Assembly: GCA_946902875.1 (NCBI GenBank)
Contig: OX336336.1
Coordinates: forward strand, 4,682,545 to 4,746,544
DNA: 64,000 nt
Source: Nematopogon swammerdamellus
Lineage: Eukaryota > Arthropoda > Insecta > Lepidoptera > Adelidae
Direction: 5' to 3'
In this document: one piece after another, positions 37,801-59,800 of the stretch
Layout of the letters: each line of letters begins with the position of its first letter
Position numbering within the stretch: position 1 is the stretch's first letter
The notes under the pieces: generated by a model
The model's input: only the letters and a program-made list of their open reading frames with translations
The model's database searches: none
What the model was told of the DNA's origin: nothing
Position numbers and translations under genes: made by a program

Positions 37801-38727
37801 GGATGGGTGAACGTTCGACCGTTGGAGGTTGCCCAAAGAACCATATAACTTCCTGAAACCATCTCTCCCCATGCATGTCGTAAAAGGCGACTAAGGGATA
37901 AGGACAAAATGCCATGCTAAAGGGCGACTGGCTCGCCACCTCTCACCTTGGCACGGTACTTCCACCGAGTGATGCAGCAGGTGGGTGGGTCTCCGTGCCT
38001 TACTTGCTGCTTGATCGATTGAATCTTGTTCGAATACTTTGCGAAACGTGGTGGTCGGTGTTGTGCTGTAATTTATCAGAGTTCTTGCAGCACAACACCG
38101 ATTACTCTGCTTACTCCGATTGTCGGGATTCAGCGTGTGTGATATGTATGTACCATTCAATGACCTCCGCTCTGTCTTTACCGTGATCTTGCATTCCATC
38201 TCTGCAGTTGAGGTCTCTGGACGTGGGCACAGAGTTCCCCAGCATAAACAATCTACGCCTTCACCACGGCGAGCTGGAAGAAGACGGCGCGCGTCTGCGG
38301 GCCCTCGACCTCACGCTCGATCTCGCCTACGATGGCTCCTTTCGCATAGACGTCGACGCCGTCATGCTACTGGGGAAAGTCGCTAACATATCAATTACAG
38401 GTAACTTAAAAAAATATGTGTCTGTGTTGCCGTTTCATGTCATGTTGCCACTGGGGTAGTGCAACGCTTTAAGGTCTTTGCTTACGGTGACACTTGGCGC
38501 GGGTCGTCTCTCACCCTTTAATATTGTTGAGGGAGGCGATGGCTGGCCACGGTGTGGTGCTCGTGAAAGGGTGCTGTTTGTGGAGACTGGCCTGCTTCAA
38601 GTGGCAACGTGGTGGGCATATCACTTTTTAGTGGAAAAAAGAAAATTTTAATTTTGTCTATTGTGCAGTGTGCCGACTTTGGATGATGGGTAAAGGAGTA
38701 ATAAATGAATAATGAGAGAGAGATAGA

Positions 38728-38802
<75 letters not shown>

Positions 38803-41800
38803 AGAAAATGTGAACATTGAAAAAAAATCTGAGATCGATGGGCGTCGTTAGACAACTTATAGGTGGCTCGGCGCCACATTTCCCGCATTCTATTAAAAAA
38901 CTATAAACTTAACATTTCACGTGCATGCGCATCTGAATAGAACTGTAGCACACGCAAACGGGATAGGCAGAGAGCAGAGAGGGGTGGGTCTCTAGATCGA
39001 ACTGGTCTAGTCTTGGGAAGTAGTCAGTCAGTTTTAGTGTCCACTGCTATACATTACGTCTCTCCTATACTTCTCCAATCCTCACGACCTTCAGCGGCAC
39101 GGTACCAGCGTTTTCCTCCGAGACGTAGCGAAGTAGGTTTCTCCCAAATTAGGTCCGGAAGGGACTGAGGTTGTTCTGTTTTGTAAAAAGAGGTTCCTTG
39201 GTATGCGCTGAGTAGTCATCAGGACCAAAAACGTTCGTCTCCTCAATTCCCTGCCACCCGTCCTATCAGCACCCTTTTGTCGTTGACATTGGGCTTTTGA
39301 GAACCCATCGGTTCTCTTAATCGTTTCTTTGTCGCACCGCTAGGGTGTGGAACTGTCTTTCGGCGAGTGTGTTTCCCGAATCCTTTAACCTGGGTGTCTT
39401 CAAACTTCGTATTAACAGGCTAGACAGCCTAGCAACAGTCGGCAAATCTGCTGGCAAGGCACCTAACTGAGCGTGGTTTCGCGAGGAAAGGGGTTTTTGA
39501 TTCTGTCGAATGCACCATTCACAGCCACCCATGTTGGTTTACTTAAAAAAAAATGTCGAATTAGAAGACAATTTAAATAGTGTCAATGTAAAGACTCTTC
39601 CGTCAGCTTAATACTGTTATTTTTGCCATTGCAGTGGAGAGTGTGAGCGGACCAGTGCGCGTGATGTTCCGGCGCACTCCGTACACGCACTGGGGGCTGG
39701 CGTTCGAGTCCCCGCCGCGTCTGGAGCTGGGCGTCAGGGGACGCTTCCAGGGTCGCCAGATCAAGCCGCGCCTCGCGTCCCTGGTCGCCGCTCACATACG
39801 AAGGGCAGTGGCGCAGAGGCACACGCTCCCACATTATAAAATAAGGTTTTTCATTTCTTCCCAACTTGGTCCCTAAACTTCGCGATGAGGTCTTAGAGAT
39901 GAAGAACAAGATGCCGTGCTAAGGGCGACAGGCTGATCGTCTCGAGTTCTTGCAGCACAACACCGATTAATTTGCTTACCCTGATTCTTGAAATACAGCG
40001 TGATAGTATGGATGTAAGTAATATATGCACGATAAGGTCTTAATATTGTATATTAAGCAGACCGCACTGATGATCGGTTCTCTCTTTTCTGGATTTGAAT
40101 CGCCTGGCTATCCTGTCGCCGTTTAGCACGGCACCTGACCTTATCCCTTATTCGCCTTTTAAATCCACAGAGAGAGATGCAGTGGGGCTATTATTCTTAA
40201 GTATCCGCAGCACATTCATTGAGATTGGAGTGCACGTGTGTCAAGTTGTACACAAACGGTGCTAATGACGTGCCTTGGGGAAGGTGTCAGCAGTGGTCGG
40301 ATACGGGGTGACGATAATGATGATGATGCTGATGATGACGATAACGGTGATGACAATGGTGATGATGATGATGATGATGCTGATGATGATGACGACGTTG
40401 ATGATGACGACGATGATGGCGATGATGGTGCAGGTACAAGCCGTTCTTCCCCAAGTCGGAGCCGGGCAGCGCGGAGAGCGAGGAGGGTCCGGTGCCGAGC
40501 GGCTGTCTGTCCGTGCACCTGCTGGAGGTCACCAGGCTACAGTGCAGCTGCGCAGACCCCGGCGCTGTTCAGGTCAGAAGCAAACCTAAAGGACTTAAGG
40601 CACGAAAATGCGCATGAGACCTAATTTCGGTTCATAGTATTTTTTTTTTTTTTATGGAACCTGACACGGTTGGCTACATCACCTACAACATCCGTGATGT
40701 CAGCCCATAACACAGGGTGAACTAGGTGCCATGTCAGTGCTTCCCTTCATTTCATGTCGGCTACACTAAACTGGACGGAAAACACGAACTATTTACATAG
40801 CCCTTTCGACCGACGTTTCGTTCAGTGCGGTGGTACCAACCCGGCCGGGATAAACCCTACCACCTAGTAAGGTAAGAAGGGAAGGGACCTATAGTTTAAC
40901 GTGGAATCCGAACCACGGTCAGCCTCCAACGGTCGAGCTGTCACCCATCCAATCACTGACCGCGTTCAGCGTTGCTTAATAACAGTTGACTAACCAACCG
41001 CGCCACTGAGCTACCGAGGCTGACGAATTTTCTTATCCCTTAGTCGACTTTTACGACATGCGACGGGGAGAGATGCAGTGGGGCTATTCTTTTTAAGTAC
41101 CGACCCCACACGGTACATCTTCAGTATCTTCATTGAATAGAATGTTTCTTGCTCTAATCTGTGACAGCTCCACATGGGTGTCGTCTTTGCTTCAAACTCA
41201 ACCAGTAGTGTATAATTGGGCAAGCTAGATCTCATTTCATTCGATCTAGCTAGCCCAATATACACTTTTTTAAATTAACTATAACGAACAACGACTAAAG
41301 CTTAAACTAACTTTAATATATTTAATTAATACATGGTATAACCAAACATGATCTAACGAGAGTTTTAATTCTCCTATCTAAGTGGAAAAAACAAACGAAT
41401 ACTTTACATTTACTCAATCATCTGTGCAACCCCATCTGTTTTTTTTTTTTTTTGTTATATTTTAAAAACTAGCTAGAACAGATTCAATGATTGATGAATA
41501 GTGCAAAAAAAACTTGTGACATTTATGTCAACTCTACTTATATTGTAATTATTCCCAAACCCCTAACCTTTTATAATGTTATCTATTTTATATTTAATAT
41601 TCAAACTAAGGTATTCTTTATACATATAAATGAAACACCGGAATTACTTGTTCTTATTATTTTTATTTAGACAACTACAAATAATAAAAAATACAAAATT
41701 ACCCATAAATCTAACTTACGTTAAATATTATACAAAATTATATTTTAAAACATTGTCGAGCATTTCCATTTATACCTTTTTAATTTACCGTATCTCTATC

Positions 41801-44800
41801 AAAATCAACTTCGTAACACCATTCCGCTAAACACATGACATTTTTTAGAGCACAATGGTTCTTATGACTAATACAATTATATTTATCCGAATCCTTACAA
41901 TAAGTTTCAGCTAATTTCTTAAAATTAGGACAATCAAACGATTCCAGGTTTACAACATTATCATTATTACACAATCTCTTTATCCAGGCTGCTTTTTCAA
42001 TGCCTTTACAGTATAAAGTCTTGTCTTGTAAGTATGGTTTAACGTAATTGTTGAATTCATTCGTGTTCAAAAATCCTTCCCTCCATGATATTCCAAGATT
42101 CTTTTCTATCCAGCGCACTTGTCTCTTTTCTTCATTGGTTAGTTTCCAATAAGGAAACGGTGGCTTCAAAATAAAAACTTCGGTTTTTCCGTATGAAGCT
42201 ATAGCCAATTCTTTCAAAATAAACTCGTTGCCAGACGTTTTGAAACCTTGCACGTCTACGATAATATGAGCAGACATGATTACTAGCAGTAATTAGTTTC
42301 AGCGTCCGGCTCGACTGCAACTTTTCGCAAGACTGTTAATATTTTAATGTAACTCGGTTATAAAAGGTAGAAATTAATTCATCACACATTTAGTGTCAAC
42401 ATCATATATTTTGTTGAGCTATGTATATGACTAAAATGTTAAGTTGTGTGTATGATGATTATTTCTGAAATACCTATTTCATGCACGTGTACAAATATAA
42501 TTTATGACTCATCAGTAATTTCAAGAATTTTAAACTTGTATTACGTTTGATGATAAATTCTCAGTATTCATAAAAATGGAAAGTGTGAAAAACAAATCAT
42601 AAGCTTAATGGTCAGTTATAGATTAAGGTCTTGCTTGTACACACGTTTCTCTACATCATCATGACATCGGTAAGATAAATATTTTTCTTTTTTAAAATAT
42701 TACCTATAAATAAAAAAAATCTAGAGGTATAATTATTTTTAGCACTTTAGAAATTTAATAAAATTAACTGAATTAATGTTATTATTTTTTATTTTCAGAT
42801 CAAGCAAACAGAATGCATCGATTTGTGTAAGAAACAGAAACAAAAAAGAACTAGGAAAGATCAACTGCAAGCTTTGTCGTCGTATGTAATGGCACCGGCA
42901 CAGACTAGGGGGCAGCAGTTAATCAAGATACAAATTTTTGATGTTCTGCCCGATGGGCTCGATACTTGTGAAGTGCCATCAATTCAAGGACAATATGTTG
43001 TGCAAGGAGCAGGTTTTGATGAAATTCTGGATACTACTGAAAGAGTTTTAAAGTTAATTTCCAAAAAAGTGATTAATTGTAATTTTGCATACTGATGTTT
43101 AAAATAAAAGCGTATTTACAACTCAAAGCGTTTTATTTAAATAAAAAACACGCAATGACAAAGAAAGGGTTAAAAGCACTAAAGGTACACATAAAATAAA
43201 CACAGTATATTAATATTACAGAACATAATTTCTGAGACTTAATAATTAATTACAAATATTACCCTTTAAATAATAACATGTATTGGTAAACAAAGGGTTG
43301 CAATCATGAAAGATACACATAAAATAAACACAGTAGGTATATTAATATTACAGAACATAATTTCTGAGACGTAAATTAGAACGATGTTTGAATCAAAACA
43401 TAGTTCGGTAATGCCCCCAGGGTAATGTACTATACTTATTTTTGAACAATTGTCGTTTATCATCAGATCTATTGAGAACTGTTTTGTTTATCTCTTGAGT
43501 GTATAACACGTGTTTCATTGATCGAATTGTTAACATTTTACGTTGTAGAGACTCGTCGCTATCGAGAGCCTTCCTATATTCTTTTCGGTTTATTAATTTT
43601 GTTGCAGATGGGGTGACCCCTTTAGCTTTTTTAATAGAGAATTCAGGTGTTTTAATGCAGTATAATTTTGCTCTCAACCCTATAAATTCCTCTACGGGAA
43701 GACCACCCAATTCATCTTTGAATAGTCCTGGTATTTTGTCGTGTACGCGTGGGATATTATAAATATTGTCTTTTGAGAAATTGCTTGTATCAAAAAATGA
43801 TATATTTTTTTTCATGTCTTTGTAAAAATCATCGGTATGTACATGATATAAAAGACTGTCAGTATCAGTGTAACACAACTTGATATTACTATCATACAGA
43901 GGCTTCATTACAGAATAATGAAAATTATATAAATGAGTTTTGGCCAATTCTAAGACGGTGAACCCGATATAAATAGGTCTGTCCAAAACAATTTCAGTCG
44001 GGTTCAGCTGAATAGCGACCAAATTTTCAGAAAATACAGAGATATTTTTGAAGTTAGGTCGAGAAATCAATTTACCTGCCCCGAGAACTTTGTTCGTCAG
44101 ATTTGTATGGTCTCTCCATACATTTGCTAACTTCACATCGACTTGATTGCGTTTATTTTCAATGGTCTTTCCAAATATTGCATTATTATATAATTTGAAG
44201 TTGTCCTTTTCAAATTCTGACTTAGCTTGTTTGCGTAGAAAAGTATTAAGCTCGATATATTTCTTTAAAAAATGTGTTTGTGTAAATGTAAGCACCCTGT
44301 GAATTTTTTTTAAAATTAAACCGTTATGTATACAAGCTTTCAAATGAATATAATGAATAACGTATTTGTTCTTGTTGTATAGACTTGCAATGAGTTTATT
44401 ATTTGTACCATTAATGGGGGTGAATTTCTCAGGAGCAAATGGTAAATCTGCATGAGCGTCGTGGAGATATTCAGGATAATCCATGTCGACTTCCAGAATA
44501 TATCCCACGTCTGAGTCATCGTCCACATCGCAAACATTAAATTTCTCAACTTCATTCACGCTCAGAAATCGAAAGTTGGCTATAGGCAATTTCCTCATCA
44601 TTACAAAACCGTACAAGTTATTACAATCTAGATACACCAGGAAAGACGTTCTTTCGTTTTTATCATAATCTGATAAATATCTATTATTTGCTTTAGCATA
44701 TCGCAGTATACTTTGGGCGAGACCTCCGCGAACGCCTTTTTCTAAAAATTCATATATTTCCAAATCTGAAACTAGTTCCAGTTTTACCTTTGTGTACAAC

Positions 44801-47800
44801 AACATTGCGTCCCAACTTAAACCTGGTGATGTAATATAATAAGCTGGATCAAGTTTGTAAAATTCTAAACTCATCTCTCGAAAATTTTCAAATACGTCAC
44901 ACAGCAAAAGTATGTCAGATTTTAGGTAGAGGTCTGTATATTCTCCAAAGTTTCTTACACCAAAAATGTGCCAGACATTCTGGGCATGATCATATTCACT
45001 TTGCGTAATATGTGTTCCAGTAAGTCTGTTATAAAAATCTGAAATATTCGGTAACGTAGTCTCTTCATATTTGTCGAGCGAATCCATATAATCATATGGA
45101 TAGACACCTTTTTGACGTAATAGGTTGAAAAGATCTGAATCATTAAATATCCGTTTTAAATGTTTGAAATCATCACTTTTTAAGCTTTTACTGAGTTTCT
45201 CAAGGCTTGAACTAAGAAATCTAAAAGAATCTATAAATTTCATTTGAGCAAACCGACCATCACCTAGTGGTAAAAACTTCGTAAAACTGATATAATTTTC
45301 TTTGTTCTTCGGTATGACTTTTATACGTCCTTTCGTATTTGCTAATTCAGTTATAAACAAGTGACAATCGTAACCCGATAAGTTATGAAAAAATATCGGT
45401 ATGAAGGGGCATTTGCGAAGAACTAAATTACATTGAGAATGGGCCGGCCCGCGAAATTTACCTGTTAAATGATCATGATCGCTAACACAGTCACCGAACA
45501 GCAGTTCCTTACAGATGTAACATTTCTCAGCTTCATTCAATATATTTTTTTGCTCAACTGTTAATGGTTTCATTGGTGCATTATAGCTTAAAATATTCTG
45601 CAATCTCAACACATCTTTAGTTAGTTTATGAATAAATGTTTTAACACAATCAGGTCCACGGTAGGTTACCAACTTATTCAATTCTGGTTTGACAGAGGAG
45701 CAAATATAATACCCGAAGCATGTAGGTATGTGAATGTTAACACATCGAGTTCGTTCAGTTTTATTGGTTTCTTTTTCTGAACAAGCGCGTAACATACTTT
45801 CAAAATCAGCGTATATAACGAAAGGCACCCTTTGTGTCCTTTCATAGTGTTCGAACTGAAGACATTTATTTTCCTGCGCTAAGATAACTCGAACTCGCGA
45901 ACAGTCATGATTTTCAAACTTACTCTCGTTAGAAAAAGGAAGCAAGCATTCTTCACATAAGAATATTTTACCATGGTGATGGGTTATTTGTGAACGCACC
46001 AACCGTTGAAGATTTTTTATTAAGCAATAGTGACTTTTTTCACCCTTTTCGATGAAAAGTAAATTTATGTGATGTAGTTTTCGCTTCTCAGTAACGTATA
46101 GGGGGCCATTTATTTCAGTTTTGTTTGACACACCATATATATTGACACTGATGCGAGGATTATTGCGTTCAAATGTTTTAATATCATCAAACGACGGTGG
46201 TAAGGACATACCGTCAGTGTTTAAAACTGTCGAGTAGTGTGGATATGTACTAACTCTGTTCGCGTTCCGCGTTGTGGGATATAAATATGCAATAATACTC
46301 CATAAAAAGCAACAATTGTCATTATTTTTCACGTTAATGCAACACTTTTTATGTTGAATAACTTGAGGTAGAGGGATATACGTTCCACCTCTTAAAGGAG
46401 TATATTTATTTATGTTTACTTCAAGGTGACTTATTCGTTCGAAACTCCACCCGGACTCGCGTTGTTCGAATTCGGTCGATTTAAGGTCAAGCTTCTCTAC
46501 GGTGGATATAAACAAATCTAATACATTAGTGCTTTGCAAGACAGGTTGATATCTAGTACTAAATGATTTCAATGTCTGTTCCCCATTTTTTATCAACGAA
46601 AAATAGCAGTACAATTCAAAGTTAACCTTTAAAGAAATATATTTGAGGAGAGTTGTTTTAATCAAACATTCTACTTGAGTGCTGATATCGATAAGGAATT
46701 CTTTAGAGTCGGCGTATTCGCGAACGGGATTTATGCGATAGCTTCTTACTCTATTTTTGAAGGCTGACGTAATCACGTGTACATTTTCTAGATCTGTGCT
46801 CAATAAAGCATTAGCTTTGTGCAAATTAGTTCTTTGATGATATCCAAACTTATTTTTGTGTATATTTTTATTGCAAATTTCACAATACATTTTCTCTAAA
46901 AATAATTTAAACATTACCTATATGTGTCATAATGTAAAACCGTAATTTTTAAACAAAAACGAAAACTACACCTTAGACGTTTCAAATGTTTTACGTTCAC
47001 AAGTTACAAAGCGAGTGAGGTACTTCCAAGCTTCCTCGTCTTCGTCCAACCTTGATTTTATCGCAATGACCGCGTGTCGCCATCTATCGATGGGCTTTAT
47101 CTTTTCGATATCTTTTGCCACATAAACTTTCAGTTCGGCAAAATACTCCCCTTTTTTGTCGAGAACACTCCTATAGTAACCATTTCCCTGCCTGCGGGCG
47201 AGCGAGCAGATTAACGAAGATGATGACTGTTTACTCCTCACCGGCGATGCAGGCACATCATCGGGTTCCACGTCGGAAGCGAAGGGGTCAACGGCGACAC
47301 GTTTCTTGGAGGGTTGTGCAGAACGTTTAATGTTGCTGGTGGCCCGGCGATTAGGCTTCACACCACGGGTGGTGGAAGGAAGCACCTCACGCTCGCTGTC
47401 AGAGCTCAAGTTGTCGGGAACGTGAGGTCGTTTCGTTGACTTCTCGCTCTTCAAGCTGCCTGTACTGCCGTTGACGCGTTTCTTGCTGATAACTTGACCG
47501 GACGGAGGGATTTCGTTCTCGCTGTCCGTGCCAAACAACTCGTACATTCGAGCGGTAGTTGAATGCTTCTCTGCTGAAGCGTTGGATTGCTTAACACCTG
47601 TGTTCTTCTTCTTTTTCTGAGCGATGAAACCAGCTTCCGCCTCATCGCCCGAATTGAACGGGTTCTTGTACGATGACCTGCAAATCAGTTAAAATATGGT
47701 TTTTATTTCCCCCAAAAAGAATATAATGTGCCCACTCCATTTGCGTATAGCATCCCGTTTAATGATTGATCTATTTATCACTCAGATGCTTATTTTTGTT

Positions 47801-50800
47801 CGCTACTAAGTCATAGAACAAGGACTACTCAATATATTTTTTAAATACCTACATACTGTAAAATTCCAAATAGCACCAGTGGTCGCAAAGTTTAGGTAAG
47901 AGTAGGGGTAGGTAAATATTATTTGTAAGATTTCCTTAAATAATAGTGAAGTGGAATTATTTTATTATTTTTTATTTAAAATAATAACACTTACATACTT
48001 TGTCCTTGGCTTTGGATTGAGCGATGGTCTGATGATGTTCTTATCACGTATCCGCTCTGCAGCGCTCCTGCTTCTCCAAGTATCTGGTGAGTGAAATATT
48101 AATAAGTACAGTGTTTGGGTAATGAGTTTTGTTTGTAGGAACGAAGTGGAATTTTTTTTTTAAGTTTCAGCTAACTGAAAGAATGTATTTCCTTTTTTAA
48201 AGCAAACGGATAAAAATAACAGTAGTGAAAATATGTAAGTGGGAAATAAGTTATTTATTAAATAGATGTAAAGCAAAAATTAAGAGAAAAAACACATATT
48301 CTGTGAAAATTTCAACGAGCTACCTATTACAGTTCAAGAGATGCATCCCTCGGGCAAACAGACAGACGGACGGACGGACGGATGGGCATACAAGCGGTCC
48401 AGGCTTAGTAATAGGCTTCCGTGGGGGATACGGACGGAAACCTATAAATAAAAGAACTTACCAACGGACGGGCAGACAGATGACACAGGCTTAGTAACGG
48501 GCTTCCGTACGGGATACGGAAACCTAAAAATAAAAGAACTCACGTTTAAATCGTCGGTACTGGCACTGATACACTTTTCACTTTTATTCACAAACTGTTT
48601 TAATTTAATTTTAATTGTTCACTGTTCACTGTAGGTACTGCTTTACTGGAGGTTTCGTTCGGACAGACAGACAGACAGACAGACGGACGGACGGACGCAC
48701 GGACGGGTAGACAGGCGGTACAGGCTTAGTAGGCTTCCGCGGGGGTTACGGAAACCTAAAAATAAAAGAACTTACCAACGGACGGGCAGACAGACGGTGT
48801 AGGCTTAGTAATAGGCTTCCGTGCGAGATACGGAAACCTAAAAATAAAAGAACTTACCTTGCAATCGTTGGCACGGATACACTTTACACTTTTATTCGCA
48901 AACTTTTTTAATTTAATTTTAATTGTTCACTGTTCACTGTAGGTCTCTTTACTTTACTGGAGATCTCGTTCAGGAATACTGATGCTGTTTCACGGCCCCT
49001 GTATGGTTTATATAGGGGTTTAATTGCTAATTTGCACACGACACTACACTGCACTCGATGATGTCACGGTAGTTCTCATGCGATAAAGTTACTGAAGCTT
49101 TTTATGGTCAAGCTACGTGATGTTTTCACTTTTGATATGAGGAGCAACGGAACAAAATCACACATATCCACTTTTTCCACAAGTGTTTTTTTATCGATTC
49201 GACATCTTTAGCCTGAAACCTACCGAATAGCAGTTTTATAGTATTCAAAATCACACTAATCGCTCTTGTATAATCGCTAGAAATCAAACGTTTGCATAAG
49301 AATCACACATATCCTGGTACAAAGTCGTATTTTGATGTAAAACTCTAAACTTGCGATCATAACAGTTTTATAGTATTCAAAATCACACTAATCGCTCTTG
49401 TATAATCGCTAGAAATCCAAGGTTTGCATCAGAATCACCCATATCCTGGTACAAAGTCGTATTTTGATGTCAAACTCTAAACTTGCGATCATAATCACAC
49501 AAATGAAATAGAATAATCATTGGATTGGAAAAAATTGCACCAAAATCACGCATATATTAGTTTATTAGTTATTTGACTCTCCTGTAAAAAAGTTAATGTG
49601 GACATGTTTGACTTTGTTTCGTTGCTCCTCATATACTGTGTCTACGAAATAATGACGTGCACGTTGCATTATCTACTAACTTCAGAAGGGGGTGGTCAAT
49701 TATATCATGGACAACGTGTACTGCTTGTACACTCAAACAAATAAAAGTATAAAACTTGAGCATGATTTATAATCCACTTATAAATTGATAAGTAGTCCGT
49801 AGTGGAAGGCGTATGAACGTGTAAACTGAATGTAAACCATGAAATTTGAAAAGCAGTCACAGTCTCTAAATTTAAATACGGTATATTGTGAACTAGATCT
49901 CCAAAAGAAAAATAATCCCCGGCACAGCTCCCTGCTGCCTGATACAATAAGATGTCTGGTTTGTGGGCCCTCTAACTGTGGGAAAACCAATATTATGTTA
50001 GGCTTGCTTCTTCATGAAAACGGTTTGAAATATAGAAATGTCTACCTTTATTGTAAAACCACATTTCAACCAAAATATCTTTTTTTAAGCAGAGTCTTAG
50101 AAAATGTGCCCGATGTATCTTTCTCAAAGTTTAAAGAAAATGAAGACGTATTGCCAGCCTCCGAAGCATTACCAAATTCAGTGTTCATTTTTGATGATGT
50201 TGCTTGTGAAAAGCAAAATAATATTCGTGATTACTTTTCCATGGGAAGACATAAGTTGATCGATTGTTTTTATTTAAATCAGACTTACACCAAAATTCCA
50301 AAACAGCTCGTACGCGATAATGCTAATTTAATTATTCTGTTCAAACAAGACGATATTAACTTAAAACATATTTATAATGAACACATAACCACCGATATGA
50401 CGTGGAATCAATTTCAAAATCTTTGCGCTGTTATTTGGAGTGTTCCGTACAACTACTTAGTAATTAATAAAGACTGTGAAAGAAATAAGGGTCAGTATCG
50501 TCTTAATTTTGATACTTTTATCGTACTTGATTAACACAATAAAAATAAAAGATTTTACTTGTTTACTTCATTCACTATCGAATGTTAAACTCACACGGAT
50601 GTCTGTGTATTGTTTTTTTTGATCATGAAGAAAACCTTAAAGAAAGAAATTATTAAATCAGTACAGGCTGTAAAAAAGAAGCTAAACCAGATAAGAGAAA
50701 ATAAATTCGACAATGAAATGATCTTAGAGCAGACTCTGAGACCTATTACAGACCCGCTGCATAAAATTGTTATAAATTCTGCCTTATCAAACAATTCACC

Positions 50801-53800
50801 CTCAAATTACAACATAAAAAAATCTACTCTTTCACCTGAATTTGAAAAAGTTGTAAATATGCATCCCGATAAAAATTTTGGAATAAATGATAACGAAACT
50901 AGTGAAGACACTAGCACTCAAACGGATGAGGAAAAAGAGTTTGAAATATTTGCGTCTCCTAGTACTAGTTTTATTCGCCATCCATCTGTTTCCTCTTTAG
51001 AATCGCAAGACGATGACATAGAAACCAAAATACCACTTTTTCCTGGCATGGCTAATTTACGAATAGATATTCCTTTTGGCATAAGACATAAAAATGGAAA
51101 AACTATGATTGGAAATAAACAAGCTATAATTGGAGATGATCAACTTTCCGTGGGCGATATAAGAGTGCATTTATCACCTGGTTTGAAAGAATTGTTATAT
51201 AAAAGAAATCCCGATTTGATTAAAATTACAACGAATGATAAAAATATATACAAACAAATATTGTTAGAAACTAATGTGCATAGAAGAGATTTCGATGCTA
51301 GAAAGGCTATAAAAAGTAACAAGGGGGCGAAATATCGCTATGTAATAAAACCTCTGTTCCATTTAGATAAAAACATATCTGGAGAGGGGTATGTATCAGG
51401 AAATGGGCTGCCATTTAAAAAAAAGGTAATGAAAGATTTAGACTATGTGTACTGGAATGATCCTAATGAGCTAGTTGAACGTCTTCATTTGTTAATTGCA
51501 TCTCGTGATGCTGGAAATACGGGTGTTGATAATGAAATCATATCTATTTTGGAAGAATTGAGAGAAAGCGGGGTGATTTAAAAACATTTATAAATCCCCC
51601 AAAATTCTACATATGCACAGTAATACTTGAGCTTTCTACGAGCACGATCCTATCCATATCTATGCAACCATGAATGTTGATAAGTTCGGTCAACATGTTC
51701 ACAAGAGACTTAGATTAACTGAATTAATACATGCGGTAGATACGGGAATCTATAAAACTGAAGACGGGCATATTGATGCGAGATCATCTAGATTAAAAAG
51801 ACTCCTTCCGCCGCAAGAAGCTGACGATGCTGTCACTAAGTCGTATGTAGACAAATTAAGTAACGAATTTTGTTCAAAAAAAGAACTTAAAAAGATCATC
51901 GAAACCTTGAGTATAGATATAAAAAGAAATTATGAATTGTTAAAAACACAGTATGATCAAACATTCTACACGAAAACAGACGTTGATCACATTATCGCTG
52001 ATTTAAAAAAATCTACCAGATAATGAGTAAAGAGGATATCGTTGAAGAAATACACAAGCCTGCGCGCAAGAACTTTCCTCGCCGTCATGTAGAATTGAAA
52101 AATATTGACGACTTGTGGCAGGCAGATTTAGCGGAGATGAGAACCTTTGCCGATAAAAACCAAGGTTACAACTTAATATTGGTCGTTATCGACGCGCTCT
52201 CAAAATACGCATGGGCAATTCCTTTAAAGACTAAAAATCAAACAGACGTTGCTAAGGCTATGCAGTTAGTTTTAGAGAAGAAAAGAAAACCCATGAATTT
52301 ACAAACTGATCACGGAAAAGAATTTTATAATGAATTGTTCAAAAATCTTATGAAAAAATATTCTATTAATCATTACTCGACATATTCTGTTAAGAAAGCT
52401 TCTATAGTAGAGCGCTTTATAAGAACTTTGAAAAATAGACTGTACAAACACTTTAGTTTAAGTGGTAATTACAAATGGGTAGGAAAACCTTTAACGGGTA
52501 TTATAAATAATTATAATAATACTTTACATAGCACAACACAGTTTAAGCCTGTAGATGTAAATCGCTTCAATATGCACACTGTTCTTTCCAATATAAAAGC
52601 AAAACTCAATAAACATAAAATTCAACGAATGCCTAAATGTAAAGTGGGTGACTATGTCCGCGTGAGTAAATATAAAGGAGCTTTTGGGAAGGGTTATGGA
52701 CCTAATTGGTCAGCAGAATTGTTCAAAATTATTGCTATCAAAACTAGGAATCCTGCAACATACATATTAAAAGATATGAAAAATCAAATAATTTCAGGAT
52801 GCTTTTATGAGCAAGAATTGTTAAAAACTAAATATCCTGATATCTATCTAGTTGAAAAAGTACTTAAACGAAGAGGTAATAAATCATTTGTTAAATGGCT
52901 CGGCTTACCTTCAACAGAGAACAGTTGGATTTATAATGACAATAAATTATAAAAATGTAAAACAATGTAATTGTAAGTCATTTAGTGTTTACTTATGAAA
53001 GGAAGAGGACTAGTCGATAAGTTAATAAATAAATTACCTTTTGAAATTCATCTACCCGGTTACAATTATTGCGGGCCTGGAACTAAGTTAGAGAAGAGAT
53101 TACTTCAAGGTGATAGAGGGGTGAATAAATTGGACGAGTATTGTAAAGAGCACGACATTGCTTATATGAAATTTAAAGATATGAGTAACCGCCATATAGC
53201 CGATGTGAAGTTAATGGAAAACGCAGCTAAACGATTAAAATCGAACAAAGCTGGGAAAGGTGAAAAAATTGCATCATGGCTTGTTAAAAATATTATGAAT
53301 GCCAAGATTGCAGCTGGAGCAGGTGTCAAGAAAAAATCCAGAGCTTTCAAAAAAATTGTTTCAAAAATTCGGTCAAACTTGAATAAACTTAAACCAAAAA
53401 ATAAGAAAACTGCTATTAAGCACGCCTTTGCTTGTGCAAAACAATTTTTAAAAGGGGGTAAAGACGTTATTAAATTACCTCGAATTATACCAATACCAAA
53501 AACGGGGGGATTCCTTCCTCTTATACCTATTTTCGCCGGTTTATCTGCTTTGGGAAGCTTGGCTGGTGGGGCTGCGGTTATAGCGAAAGCTGTTAACGAT
53601 GCTAAAGCTGCGCAACAACAACTAAAAGAAGCCCAAAGACATAACCAAGCAATGGAATCGGTTGTTATAGGTCACGGCTTACATATTAAACCGTATAAGA
53701 ATGGTCGTAAAATATATTTAAATTTGCAAAAAAACTAATAAAGCAGCTGCCTAGACGAGCACTTACCAATATTGACATCGTAAAATATGCGCAAGATATC

Positions 53801-56800
53801 CCCTATTTCAGAGGTGTATATATGAGGGATACTTTGCCGAGGAAAGTTCGTGATGTTGAATGTGGTATAGTAAATTTGGACAGCATCCTGAATCAAGGAA
53901 CTCACTGGGTAGCCTACACTAAAATAAATAATTATGCTGAATATTTTGACAGCTTTGGAGATTTGATGCCTCCTTTAGAAATAATCAACTATTTGAAGTG
54001 CGAAAATATTTTTTACAACTATAAAAGATATCAAACATTTAATGAAAAAAACTGTGGTCATCTTTGCATCGAGTTTCTTAATTTTTTTTGGCAACTTCAT
54101 TTATAAGTAATGCTCAATTTTAAAATTCATCATTTTTCGAAATGTCATTCACACTGTCGGTCACTGGCAACGCCTCTAGCTTAACAACAAATTATTTACC
54201 AGCCCTTCAATTAAACGGCGAGTATGAATGCGGGTTACTATATTTTGCGACATTTAATTCTATCCCCAATGTGGACTATAAGAACAATAAATTTCACTAT
54301 GGTGATAATTATGTTATCGAAATTCCAGAGGGATCATACGAGCTCGAAGACATTTCCGAATATTTAAAAAATCATATTCATGATAGTAATATTAATATAT
54401 CATCGAATAACAACACTCTAAAATGTAATATTATTTGCTCAAAAGATATACACTTTGAAAAATCTAACTCCATTGTTACATTGCTGGGCTTTCCTAAAGA
54501 AGTTCTTAAAGCAAATAAAATGCACGAATCAACCTATCCTGTCAACATTCTACCGACAACCGTCATTAGGATCGAATGTGATATTTTGAGTGGCTCATTT
54601 GCAAACGGAAAACCATCACATATAATTCACGAGTTCATACCGAACGTACCGCCGGGTTACAGGATTTTAGAAAAACCAGAAAACATTGTTTACTTTCCCG
54701 TTAATCAAAAGTCTATATCTTCAATCAACATTAGAATACTCGATACTGGCAACAATTTAATTAATCTTCGGGAAGAAGATATATATTTGTGTTTACACTT
54801 AAGAAAAACATTATGATTTTGTTCAATAAAATAGGTATGGTTCAGAACAATCGTGTTAGTAAAGAGCGGTGTATTCGACGAGAAAGACGTGAAATTAAAT
54901 TAACCGACAAAAATAAACAATTTCTTAAACTTATCGGGTTATTAAAATGAGCATCTTAAACATAACGGAACCTCCAGCCTACGATGAATCTATTGAAAGC
55001 ATCGAAGTACATTCCTATAAACCCTACGTTAACAGTTTTAATAATAATGACGAGATCAGAATCCCTATAAACCAACAAGATTTGTATGTTCTTCCTTCAG
55101 AAAGTTCGATATACATTGAAGGTGCTTTCTATGTATACAAAACTGGCGCAGATAACAAACCTGAAAGAGTTCCCAACGTCACTTTCATAAACAATCCAAT
55201 TTTATTTCTATTCCAAGACATCAGGTATGAACTGAATGGTGTTGAAATAGATAAAATTAAAAATGCAGGCATTACTACAACGATAAAGTCATACATTTCA
55301 ATGAATGAAATTGACTCGAAAATGGCAGCAGCTTGGGGTTGGAACCCCTCTGAAATTCAGAATAGTGACGGTCGTTTTAGCGTGAACATACCGCTAAATA
55401 AAATATTCGGGTTCGCAGAGGATTACAAGAAAATTATAATAAATTGTAAACATGAACTTGTACTTTTAAGAAGCAGCACTAATGTGAACAGTTTGAAATT
55501 AAATCTGGGGGAATTTGTATCCGAAGTAAAAATCTCTAAAATTGTATGGAGAGTCCCCCATGTAAAAGTTTCAGATCGAGAACGCTTGCATTTGCTTAAA
55601 TATTTGGAAAAAGATAAAAGTTTACAAATTGCCTTCAGGAACTGGGATTTATACGAATATCCGCTTTTACCTAAAACAACCAAACACACGTGGTCTATTA
55701 AGACATCGAGTCAAATAGAGAAACCTAGATTTGTCATCTTAGGGCTTCAGACCAATCGAAAGAATTCTAAGATTTCTAACATGTCTCATTTTGATCATTG
55801 CAATTTACGTGAGGTTAAAGTACTTTTAAACTCCAATTATTATCCGTATGATTCGCTCTCTATAAAATTTGATGAAGATAAGTATGCTTTGTTGTATGAG
55901 TTATATACAAAATTTCAACAATCTTATTACGGGCGTCAGGCGAGCCCTTTGCTAAGTTTATCCAACTTTAAAAATAAAGCACCACTTTTTATCATTGACT
56001 GCTCTCGTCAGAATGAATCCATTAAATCAGGCCCCATAGATGTTCGCGTCGAAATTGAGAGCGATAAGGAGATTCCTGATAATACAGCAGCTTATTGTCT
56101 CATACTGAATGATTGTATAATAGAATATAAACCCCTAAGTAATATCGTAAAAAAAATATCGTAATTGTTCAAATGCATACATTATAAGTTATCAAATTTA
56201 TTGTAATAATTATGCCTTGATTTACTTAATTTTTTATTTTTAGTAGTATAGTAATTATACTTATAAATAAATTACTATGAAGAAACACCTGGCTTTTCAC
56301 TGTAATCCTAATTTATAAAGTACTTTCCAGATATTGATAAACAAAGTTAGTAATATTTTTGATTTGACTGTACCTTAATGTTATGAGGGGATCACATTAC
56401 AGACACGGTTCGACACTATCTCAGAGTTGATGAAAAAGGAGTTGTTCATTATATGATGCACGGATCACTCTAATAATAATACAATGAGCGTGCAATTCAC
56501 TGTAAATCTAAATTAGGAATAAGAAAAATAAAACATCCTAATACGGTCAGATTAGTTCATCTTAACCGATTTATGTATGTGTTACTATTCCATGCGAATA
56601 TGAGGGTGTATTTGATTGAGAGTCAGGTATAAGTTCAGAGGTTCAGAGTAATGAAATCACAGTGCAGCATTGATCGCAAACCACTGAACGCAAAGCAAAG
56701 CCTCTGATCGTAAAGGATAATCAGAAATACAGAATACAGAAATACGGATATACATAATCAGAAAATGTTGTACCATATGTTCTACCAGAAAGTGTTGTAA

Positions 56801-59800
56801 TGTTGAAAATTTTACTGAATGAGTATTTTTTGCTTTTAATTTGCTAAATTTATACTGTAATAAGACGTATACATGAACGGATAGATGGGTTGGATACGAT
56901 TGAGCCAAATGTATTGTTAGAATGAATTATTGGATTGTTTTTACGTTCGATGAAAATAAAAAAGCGTTTTATCCGTCGTTCGATAGTTAATTTAAAAAAG
57001 TGTATATTGGGAAAGCTAGATCGAATGAAATGAGATATAGCTTGCCCAGTGCAGCATTGATCGCAAACCCACTGATCGCAAAGCAAAGCCTCTGATCGTA
57101 AAGGAAGTCATACATAATCAGAAAATGTTGTACCTTATGTTCTACCAGAAAGTGTTGTAATGTTGAAAATTTTACTGAATGAGTATTTTTTGCTTTTAAT
57201 TTGCTAAATTTATACTGTAATAAGACGTATACATGAACGGATAGATGGGTTGGATACGATTGAGCCAAATGTATTGTTAGAATGAATTATCGGGTTGTTT
57301 TTACGTTCGATGAAAATAAAAAAGCGTTTTATCCGTCGTTCAATAGTAAATTTAAAAAAGTGTATATTGGGAAAGCTAGATCGAATGAAATGAGATTTAG
57401 CTTGCCCAATTATACACTACTTCAACCCAACACGTCCAGCTGATTTCCTCCAATGCAGCTGCAATGTGTGCCTAGGTGTACGCGGTGCTGGGCACGGACT
57501 CGCACGCGTGGGTCTCGCTCCGGCGGGACGTCCTGACGCTGGACATCACCGTGTCGCCCCCGGCCGGCGGCGGCCAGCTCGGCCTCGTGTGCTGTCAGAC
57601 CCTCGGCGCGCAGGTCGCCGTCGATACGGTCAGTCATTCTCTCCTGTTTCATTGAGTCGGACTCGCACGCCTGGGTCTCGCTGCGGCGGGACGTGCTGAC
57701 GCTGGACATCACCGTGTCGCCCCCGGCCGGCGGCGGCCAGCTCGGCCTCGTGTGCTGCCAGACCCTCGGCGCGCAGGTCGCCGTCGATACGGTCAGTCAT
57801 TCTCTCCTGTTTCATTGAGTCGAACTCGCACGCGTGGGTCTCGCTGCGGCGGGACGTGCTTACACTGGACATCACCGTGTCGCCCCCGGCCGGCGGCGGC
57901 CAGCTCGGCCTCGTGTGCTGTCAGACCCTCGGCGCGCAGGTCGCCGTCGATACGGTCAGTCATTCTCTCCTGTTTCATTGAGTCGGACTCGCACGCCTGC
58001 GTCTCGCTGCGGCGGGACGTGCTGACGCTAGACATCACCGTGTCGCCCCCGGCCGGCGGCGGCCAGCTCGGCCTTGTGTGCTGTCAGACTCTCGGTGCGC
58101 AGGTCGCCGTCGATACGGTCAGTCATTCTCTTCTGTTTCATTGAGCCGGACTCGCACGCGTGGGTCTCGTTACGGCGGGACGTGCTGACGCTGGACATCA
58201 CCGTGTCGCCCCCGGCCGGCGGCGGCCAGCTCGGCCTCGTGTGCTGTCAGACCCTCGGTGCGCAGGTCGCCGTCGATACGGTCAGTCATTCTCTACTGTT
58301 TCATTGAGTCGGACTCGCACGCATGGGTCTCGCTGCGGCGGGACGTGCTGACGCTGCTGGGGCCAGCTCGGCCTCTCCTGTGCTGTCAGACCCTCGGCGC
58401 GCAGGTCGCCGTCGATACGGTCAGTCATTCTCTCCTATTTCATAGAGTCGGACTCGCACGCGTGGGTCTCGCTGCGGCGGGACGTGCTGACGCTGGACAT
58501 CACCGTGGCGATCCTAATTCACTAGAATATCTTCTCAAGAATAATTAATGACGCCACGCATTGGTCAGGTGGTGCCAATGTCGCCGGCGTACCGCGCCGA
58601 TCTGCGCCGCGGCGACATCGTCCTGGCGATCGACAGCAAGCCGGCCTCCACGGTCGGTCAGGTCGGCAAGCTCCTGCGCAGCGCCGAGCGGCGCGCCGTC
58701 ACCGTGCGCGTGCGCCGCGTCATGCCGCGCCGCAGCAAGACCGCCGATCGCTACGGCCTCGACCCTCCGACGCTCGCTCCGGAACTCAAGAGGGCCAAGA
58801 CCAATAGCTTCTCCTTCAGAAGGGTCTCTGAGGTCATGGAGGGCGTGCGGCTGCAGGGCATGAAAGTGGCGCAGGGAAAATCCTCCTCCCAGGTGACTTT
58901 TTTTATATGCAATCTGGTAAGGATGTCTTAGTCACAGAGCTGAGTACATGATTCGACCAGCAAATATCGCCACCGAGAAGGTGTTATACCGGAGATTTCC
59001 TATTTGACGGCTGGCTAAGGAGAACACAGCCGAAGCCTTCATCAAATAGAAAAAATCATTCGTACACATCTTCCGGATTCGAACCACGGACTTTCAGATC
59101 AAGAGTCGTAGTCAACAATCGCACCGATCACCCGCCTCTTTACTTTGAAATATTACTGGTATTGTTTATTTAGCCACAGGAGGTATGGGAATGGGAGTCA
59201 ATGATATCGAATATTCTTGCAGGAATCTGAGTCGCCGAGCCAAAAACCACCAGAGCCGCAAATTGAGACTGAATCACCTGCCAAGAAACCGCCTGAGCCC
59301 GCCAAGCCGCAGCAGAAGCCGCAGGAGCCGGTCGTGCCTGCGGTGGGTCCCGGCGGCAGCTTCGGCCTGCGCAAGCGCCGGTGCTCCGTCGAGAACAAGC
59401 ACTCGTCCGACAGCTCCGCCGGCAGTACCCCACCGGCCTCCGGAGAGAGCACTCCGCTCCGGCAAGCGAAAGAGGCAGCCGGCAAACCTTACAAGCACGG
59501 CGAAATACCTACCATACGGACAGACTCCTACGAGAATCCCAAATATTATGACAAGGTCGACCCTCAGAAGTACGACTCGGTCGCAGCTTCGGACGAGTCC
59601 AGCCCGCCCGATGACAGCGTGACGAGCGAATCGAGTGGGCATTCGAGGCACAGCGAGCACATTGAGATATGTCAACTGTACACCATGAAGCCAGTAGCGC
59701 TCAAGCCGATCGTGCGGTTCGAAGACAAAGCGATGTTCAAACTGAACGAGAACCATAAGTACCTGAATATCAACGTGTGGGCGTCTCTGCCCGGTGAGAC

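What the first reader, a model, noticed from the sequence alone, without database searches (positions are those of the whole stretch)
41198..57427. Complete, apparently intact Polinton in a PDZD8 intron
Both termini, a perfect 6-bp target duplication (TCAACC) and an essentially full gene set with open frames are all visible. Complete copies with polymerase, integrase, ATPase, protease and both capsid genes are uncommon in insect assemblies. High end identity and open frames suggest a recent insertion. It could be a live element or an endogenous virus-like form.
Basis: partly seen in the sequence, partly recalled or inferred. Interest (0 to 1): 0.88.

Follow-up and report, generated by a model that had tools for sequence, protein, structure and literature searches.

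The report
Polinton with a Maelstrom-like gene
This is a complete copy of a virus-like jumping element of a family already known from moths, sitting inside a host gene; one of its small genes looks like a worn-out nuclease of the type found in an insect protein that helps silence such elements, and our paper searches listed no report of that.

Summary
A 16,218-bp Polinton/Maverick lies at 41204-57421, with 79-nt terminal inverted repeats (75/79 identical), a perfect TCAACC duplication and the Maverick end motif (AGT)2//(ACT)2. It carries pPolB, RVE integrase, A32-type ATPase, PLA2-domain protein, double-jelly-roll capsid protein, and protease- and penton-like frames. It sits in an intron of an SMP-PDZ gene (PDZD8). 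It is a new member of the lepidopteran Maverick/adintovirus clade: capsid relatives up to 72% identical; the 7 named among 120 listed are moths. "Recent" and "intact" are weaker: 4 of 79 end positions differ, the right end is tandemly duplicated, and the protease frame has no AUG before its conserved start. The surprise is the ORF at 41780-42277. Its model has the DnaQ-exonuclease fold. In 6 of 6 aligned sequences it keeps an E-C-H-C set like the zinc tetrad of Maelstrom's MAEL domain, with matching short intervals, and of three acidic positions checked only the first survives, as in Bombyx Maelstrom. The fold also matches Drosophila adintovirus and ichnovirus proteins. An RNA-binding or anti-piRNA role is hypothesis. 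Copy number, empty sites and activity were untestable: 17 genome requests did not complete.

The parts
41198..41203 (.). left target-site duplication TCAACC
   Evidence: read directly
41204..41282 (+). left terminal inverted repeat, begins AGTAGT; holds an internal palindrome (stem from nt 4, 11-nt loop)
   Evidence: (DNA fold z -8.7)
41780..42277 (-). 165-aa MAEL-like pseudo-exonuclease gene
   Evidence: model pLDDT 85; DnaQ fold; D8 Q10 E23 C135 H138 C142 N146 invariant in 6 of 6
43393..46914 (-). protein-primed DNA polymerase B, 1173 aa, with EndoVII-like insert
   Evidence: PF02945; exonuclease and polymerase motifs (labels recalled); 39% to L001
49839..50534 (+). A32/FtsK-type packaging ATPase, 231 aa
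   Evidence: PF04665 E 7.4e-6; Walker-type motifs
50625..51581 (+). 318-aa ORF, likely ORF2 of Sf Mavericks
   Evidence: order and length only; no family hit
51670..52023 (+). 117-aa fibre-like ORF
   Evidence: weak T7 tail-fibre hits: Pfam E 1.2e-4, below cut-off; PHROG E 2.8e-5
52023..52952 (+). retroviral-type integrase, 309 aa, with possible C-terminal chromodomain
   Evidence: PF00665 E 3.4e-10; Chromo E 0.0053, below cut-off; D42, D103 and E137 of the frame that starts at 52002, 33 residues between the last two
52995..53738 (+). PLA2-domain minor capsid-type protein, 247 aa
   Evidence: PF08398 E 4.3e-15; four PDB capsid-protein sequences at E 0.0018 (parvoviral by recall)
53711..54106 (+). 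adenain-like cysteine protease frame, 131 codons stop to stop, no AUG before codon 38
   Evidence: PF00770 E 0.018, below cut-off; His, Asp and Cys motifs (labels recalled)
54142..54816 (+). penton-like (minor capsid) ORF, 224 aa
   Evidence: position only; no hit above cut-off
54947..56164 (+). double-jelly-roll major capsid protein, 405 aa
   Evidence: PF21738 E 1.1e-113; 1,605 homologues at E <= 0.001
56661..57408 (.). right-end tandem duplication; inner copy of the repeat lacks the terminal 13 nt
   Evidence: junction read by eye
57343..57421 (-). right terminal inverted repeat, ends ACTACT on +
57422..57427 (.). right target-site duplication TCAACC

Best explanation
A chromosomal copy of an insect Maverick/Polinton of the lepidopteran adintovirus-like clade. 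Inferred life cycle: the integrase joins the linear DNA ends into host DNA at staggered cuts, giving the 6-bp duplication. The polymerase copies the DNA from the repeat ends by protein priming; the (AGT)2 termini fit the slide-back initiation known from other protein-primed replicons (recalled). The ATPase, protease and capsid proteins package the DNA into particles. Shown here: ends, duplication, gene content, clade. Inferred: every functional step. The small gene next to the left end encodes a MAEL-type pseudo-nuclease, probably a zinc-stabilised nucleic-acid-binding protein.
For: Duplication and repeats. Ends (AGT)2//(ACT)2 match the commonest motif reported for vertebrate Mavericks, whose intact elements are 12.7-24.6 kb with 46-1,447-bp repeats and 6-bp duplications (PMC8097293 passages). 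Gene set. Capsid homologues, best 72%, including the hexon of 'Spodoptera moth adintovirus 1' (67%) and 'ORF 7 [Spodoptera frugiperda]' (66%). The order ATP, ORF2, INT, CAP, PRO, ORF6, ORF7 is that in which Table 2 of PMC5803895 lists the Sf Maverick ORFs, with CAP named the 4th small ORF (the figure was not seen). MAEL-like gene.
Confidence: 0.92

Rival explanations
1. An inactive, slowly decaying fossil copy: the ends have diverged, the right end is duplicated, a small transposon sits inside, and the protease cannot be translated.
For: 4 of 79 end mismatches; right-end duplication; nested inverted repeat 49135-49634; no AUG before codon 38 of the protease frame.
Against: Ten frames are open, including 1,174 codons of polymerase; catalytic motifs are kept. 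End differences could predate insertion.
Confidence: 0.4
2. The protease is translated by -1 frameshifting from the PLA2 gene at A AAA AAC (53729-53735), directly before that gene's stop, giving a PLA2-protease fusion, so that the copy is intact.
For: The heptamer is in frame and its -1 frame is the protease frame; the protease frame lacks an early AUG.
Against: No stimulatory structure downstream: fold z +1.57, 191 of 200 shuffles fold at least as well. Slippery heptamers are common in this AT-rich DNA: four in frame in the PLA2 gene alone. Relatives were not compared.
Confidence: 0.3
3. The small left-end gene is an ordinary DnaQ-type nuclease, an arenavirus-like exonuclease relative or a polymerase accessory, with no special link to Maelstrom.
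For: DinG and Pol III epsilon exonucleases rank above Maelstrom in structure and arenavirus nucleoproteins beside it; the latter also carry ECHC, together with an intact DEDD (PMC4408791 note; PMC7968707 passages). No Pfam Maelstrom hit. Two of MAEL's six signature residues are not seen.
Against: The second and last acidic positions are Q and N in 6 of 6, as they are N and R in Bombyx MAEL; E, C, H and C stand at matching intervals of 15, 3 and 4.
Confidence: 0.3

Closest known systems
Sf Maverick 1 and 2 (Spodoptera frugiperda, PMC5803895)
   Same: ATP, ORF2, INT, CAP (PLA2), PRO, ORF6, ORF7 listed in the same order, with similar lengths except ORF6 (148 aa there, 224 here); EndoVII domain predicted in POLB; POLB on the opposite strand in Sf Maverick 2
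   Different: here POLB and the small ORF lie left of the ATPase and point away from it; an extra fibre-like ORF; capsid 66% identical to the Sf ORF 7 record. The term 'terminal inverted' does not occur in that paper's main text.
Spodoptera moth adintovirus 1 and Drosophila-associated adintovirus 2
   Same: hexon 67% identical to the former; the latter's 166-aa protein matches the small ORF model (Foldseek E 1.1e-9, 20% identity)
   Different: divergent sequences; whole records not compared
Maelstrom MAEL domain (Bombyx, PMC4408791)
   Same: DnaQ fold, ECHC set, first acidic residue kept and two others lost: D122/N124/E137/C290/H293/C302/R306 against D8/Q10/E23/C135/H138/C142/N146
   Different: no HMG box; 10-14% identity over Maelstrom chains; H-to-C and E-to-C gaps differ; two further MAEL histidines not seen; no Pfam Maelstrom hit
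Ichnovirus proteins GfV-D6-ORF1 and AsIV-cont00151-ORF1
   Same: Foldseek E 4e-11 and 1.6e-10, 27% and 34% identity over 120 and 124 columns of the small ORF model
   Different: carried by polydnaviruses of parasitoid wasps; whether they keep the tetrad was not checked

Membership tests
Polinton/Maverick | 6-bp target-site duplication | tested here: met
   TCAACC on both sides
Polinton/Maverick | terminal inverted repeats with (AGT)2//(ACT)2 or (AG)3//(CT)3 ends | tested here: met
   79 nt, 75/79 identical, AGTAGT...ACTACT; motif from PMC8097293
Polinton/Maverick | protein-primed PolB | tested here: met
   motifs, 39% to L001, EndoVII insert; no Pfam PolB profile hit
Polinton/Maverick | retroviral-like integrase | tested here: met
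   PF00665 E 3.4e-10
Polinton/Maverick | A32/FtsK-type ATPase | tested here: met
   PF04665 E 7.4e-6
Polinton/Maverick | adenain-like protease | tested here: inconclusive
   PF00770 E 0.018, below cut-off; His/Asp/Cys motifs kept; no early AUG
Polinton/Maverick | double-jelly-roll major capsid protein | tested here: met
   PF21738 E 1.1e-113
Polinton/Maverick | penton (minor capsid) protein | tested here: inconclusive
   by position only; no hit above cut-off
Polinton/Maverick | mobility or particle formation | not testable with these tools
   no second copy, reads or expression data could be reached
Adintovirus | hexon recognisable by BLASTP to adintovirus hexons | tested here: met
   67% to the hexon of Spodoptera moth adintovirus 1; definition from PMC11071296
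Adintovirus | integrase with C-terminal chromodomain | tested here: inconclusive
   Chromo E 0.0053, 17.1 bits against cut-off 25.1
Adintovirus | PolB with N-terminal OTU-like domain | tested here: inconclusive
   no profile hit; DNCC-type motif by eye (label recalled)
Maelstrom MAEL domain | DnaQ/RNase H nuclease fold | tested here: met
Maelstrom MAEL domain | ECHC residues with loss of DEDD acidic residues | tested here: met
   sequence positions invariant in 6 of 6; three of the four acidic positions mapped; zinc and 3D clustering not testable here
Maelstrom MAEL domain | full six-residue signature EHHCHC (PMC2628886) | tested here: not met
   H138 is the only invariant histidine of 46 invariant columns
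Maelstrom MAEL domain | Pfam Maelstrom profile match | tested here: not met
   no match in any of 6 members at E up to 10
Maelstrom MAEL domain | HMG box of animal Maelstrom proteins | tested here: not met
   no HMG hit in the 165-170-aa protein
PDZD8 | SMP followed by PDZ domain on one strand | tested here: inconclusive
   PDZ_6 E 7.3e-14; MMM1/SMP E 0.0052, below cut-off

The most novel reading that the evidence does not exclude
Insect Polintons and adintoviruses, and ichnoviruses with proteins of the same fold, encode a catalytically dead MAEL-type protein that binds RNA or PIWI-piRNA complexes as a decoy and blunts piRNA silencing, so that the element carries a counter-defence shaped like the host's own silencing factor.
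Probability: 0.25. Interest if true: 0.85.

Novelty: new member of a known kind. Interest (0 to 1): 0.5.

Why it matters
The element itself extends a known moth clade. The small gene matters more. If a transposon or virus family encodes a MAEL-type pseudo-nuclease, it gives a concrete candidate for how Polintons might escape piRNA silencing and makes that question testable with one protein. It also adds a case of the MAEL-like exonuclease fold in a mobile element or virus, next to the arenaviral exonuclease discussed in PMC7968707 (passages) and the rotifer retrotransposon ORFs noted in PMC5408684 (passages).

Tried and rejected
Genome-wide tests (other copies, empty site): the genome search 'own' with the 79-nt right repeat did not complete (17 identical requests).

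Relatives in IMG/VR: none for the capsid alone, for a capsid alignment of the window protein with 21 of the 120 listed homologues, for the integrase or for the small ORF aligned with 5 of 5 homologues. One distant relative for the polymerase (L001) had no detectable small-ORF homologue (best E 0.095); 13,474 of its 17,398 bases were held. A 17-nt end pattern hit 5 contigs, each once and not at a contig end, taken as chance.

The 240-codon GC-rich ORF at 46966-47688 had no homologue at E <= 0.001 among 368 candidates (that search cannot find much longer relatives) and a poor model (pLDDT 49.5), so it was not searched by fold. The capsid had no PDB sequence match at E <= 1 and the polymerase only two chance-level ones; two host ORFs likewise. 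Dating the insertion from end divergence was rejected as too imprecise. A functional role of the hairpin inside the end repeats was considered: it is strong (0 of 200 shuffles at either end), but no relative's ends could be compared. A frameshift structure after the slippery heptamer was not found. Papers opened without use for the argument: PMC4028283, PMC3671162.

The odds of the novel reading went from 0.3 to 0.25, and those of the rival from 0.25 to 0.3, for that reason.
Full report
WHAT IS THERE. The element spans 41204-57421 (16,218 bp). Its ends are 79-nt inverted repeats, 75 of 79 identical, flanked by TCAACC at 41198-41203 and 57422-57427. The termini read AGTAGT...ACTACT. PMC8097293 (passages) gives (AGT)2//(ACT)2 as the commonest end motif of vertebrate Mavericks, with 6-bp duplications, sizes of 12.7-24.6 kb and repeats of 46-1,447 bp. 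The element is AT-rich (GC 0.21-0.41 in most 250-bp steps) in mostly GC-richer surroundings; two inner blocks are higher, 47.0-47.75 kb (up to 0.56) and 48.25-48.75 kb (up to 0.46).

GENES. On the minus strand: a 165-aa ORF at 41780-42277, and the polymerase at 43393-46914 with an EndoVII-type insert and exonuclease and polymerase motifs (labels recalled). On the plus strand: ATPase, a 318-aa ORF, a fibre-like ORF, integrase, PLA2-domain protein, protease frame, penton-like ORF and double-jelly-roll capsid protein. PMC5803895 (section 11 read, passages; figures not held) describes two Spodoptera frugiperda Mavericks; its Table 2 lists POLB and ATP, ORF2, INT, CAP (PLA2), PRO, ORF6, ORF7, ORF8, CAP being the 4th small ORF, with POLB on the opposite strand in one. 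The order here agrees up to ORF7. The 165-aa ORF here may be ORF8 (158 aa there), by length and neighbourhood only. The polymerase module points away from the capsid module, an arrangement also reported for cane toad Mavericks (PMC8097293).

CLADE. The capsid protein has 1,605 homologues at E <= 0.001 among 4,795 candidates; 120 were listed, the best 72% identical. Of the 7 listed rows with an organism name, 7 are moths (Loxostege twice, Ostrinia, Helicoverpa, Chrysodeixis, Spodoptera twice). The host is therefore probably a moth, but its name was not available. Adintoviruses and insect Mavericks overlap; the paper that proposed adintoviruses (Starrett 2021) is not held, and the definition used here comes from passages of PMC11071296.

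HOST SITE. A PDZ domain lies at 58545-58928 (E 7.3e-14), and an SMP-like hit, below its cut-off, at 38187-38456, on the same strand and on opposite sides of the element. The sequence ...GTGTGCCTAG|GTGTACGCG puts a likely exon start at 57476, 48 bp after the right duplication (sequence; splice reading by eye). Tandem 163-bp units that repeat part of this exon follow from 57495.

HOW INTACT, HOW RECENT. Ten frames are open. The protease frame has no AUG before codon 38, inside the part that looks conserved. A slippery heptamer A AAA AAC directly before the PLA2 stop would lead into the protease frame, but there is no downstream structure, such heptamers are frequent here, and no relative was compared. 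The right end carries a tandem duplication (299 nt, 98%); its inner repeat lacks the terminal 13 nt, with a short shared sequence at the joint (read by eye). End divergence is 5.1% (95% interval 1.4-12.5%) and duplication divergence 2.0% (0.7-4.3%). These do not date the insertion.

END HAIRPINS. Each end repeat contains a palindrome that starts 3 nt from the terminus. As single-stranded DNA it folds at -19.5 (left) and -13.2 kcal/mol (right), with 0 of 200 shuffles as good in either case. In a scan of the 64 kb for short-loop hairpins 4 passed the threshold; the left end's was one, the right end's was not. Two searches for Polinton with hairpin or palindrome terms listed nothing in titles or abstract starts about hairpins in Polinton ends, and 'hairpin' does not occur in PMC8097293. 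A role in replication or integrase binding is possible but untested.

THE RESIDUE PATTERN. PMC4408791 (passages, section 5) gives for Bombyx MAEL: D122 kept, N124 and R306 in place of acidic residues, and zinc held by E137, C290, H293 and C302. Here D8, Q10, E23, C135, H138, C142 and N146 are invariant in 6 of 6. The intervals first D to E (15 and 15), C to H (3 and 3) and last C to the lost acid (4 and 4) agree; E to C (112 against 153) and H to C (4 against 9) do not. Counted by hand from the end points of the VIA alignment, and only if it is gap-free near the ends, D8 falls on 122, E23 on 137, C142 on 302 and N146 on 306 (numbering of 9nhc taken to be that of Bombyx Maelstrom, by recall). 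The secondary-structure settings agree too: D in strand 1, E in strand 2, cysteines in loops, N in the last long helix. Dealing the letters of the 46 invariant columns anew gave E at 23, C at 142 and some C-x2-H before it in 12 of 1,000,000 trials; the test was framed after the match was seen. Against it: no Pfam Maelstrom hit, no Maelstrom chain by profile, and of the six-residue MAEL signature EHHCHC (PMC2628886, passages) two histidines are not seen, since H138 is the only invariant one. The third acidic residue of the DEDD motif was not mapped. Arenavirus nucleoproteins carry ECHC with DEDD intact (PMC4408791 note), so the tetrad alone does not decide; the loss of acids sides with animal MAEL.

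IN OTHER VIRUSES. In BFVD (50 of 599 matches shown) the best named matches are GfV-D6-ORF1 and AsIV-cont00151-ORF1 of ichnoviruses and an uncharacterised protein of Drosophila-associated adintovirus 2, E 4e-11 to 1.1e-9; ranks 1 and 5 have no name; arenavirus nucleoproteins are at ranks 9 and 17. PMC8363768 (passages) mentions possible very distant hytrosavirus and ichnovirus homologues in Drosophila-associated adintovirus 1, without a fold in the passages seen. PMC5408684 (passages) notes a Maelstrom-like Cys-His-Cys motif in DEDDy ORFs of two rotifer LTR retrotransposon families, so a transposon with a MAEL-like zinc motif has a precedent. PMC7968707 (passages) links the arenaviral exonuclease to MAEL through ECHC. 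Searches for Maelstrom with Polinton (2 papers, by listing on piRNA silencing and on Drosophila virilis transposons), for two of Maelstrom, ichnovirus, adintovirus, Maverick element and exonuclease (15 of 119 listed) and for three of Maverick, Polinton, piRNA and suppressor (12 of 41 listed) listed no report of a MAEL-like gene in Polintons. Only a part of the literature is held.

MECHANISM AND WEIGHT. The transposition and replication scheme follows from the gene families and is inferred. For the small gene, Bombyx Maelstrom is inactive as a nuclease and its MAEL domain binds single-stranded RNA (PMC4408791 abstract). The likeliest function by analogy is RNA binding; interference with piRNA silencing is the boldest reading that is not excluded. 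The element is a new member of a known kind; the interest lies mainly in this gene.

Noticed in passing
46966-47688 (-): A 240-codon GC-rich ORF (GC up to 0.56) inside the AT-rich element, directly after a splice-acceptor-like TTTGCAG|G (by eye). No homologue of similar length; possibly the last exon of a captured, spliced gene.
   Followed up: partly
49135-49634: A 40-nt inverted repeat, bordered by TA if read from TGAGG, enclosing a 132-bp tandem repeat; looks like a small MITE nested in the element.
   Followed up: partly
48358-48953: About two copies of a 314-bp unit with CGGA/CAGA microsatellites between the divergent gene modules.
   Followed up: no
57495-58510: Tandem 163-bp units (5.3 copies by TRF) that repeat a piece of the PDZD8-type exon start about 70 bp after the element's right end.
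   Followed up: partly
52002-52011: Slippery heptamers at the end of the fibre-like ORF would lead by a -1 shift into the integrase frame; the integrase has its own ATG.
   Followed up: no
61201-61284: A nearly perfect 40-bp hairpin with a 4-nt loop in host DNA downstream, the strongest in the scan of the window.
   Followed up: no
41204-41282 and 57343-57421: A palindrome lies inside each terminal repeat, starting 3 nt from the end.
   Followed up: partly
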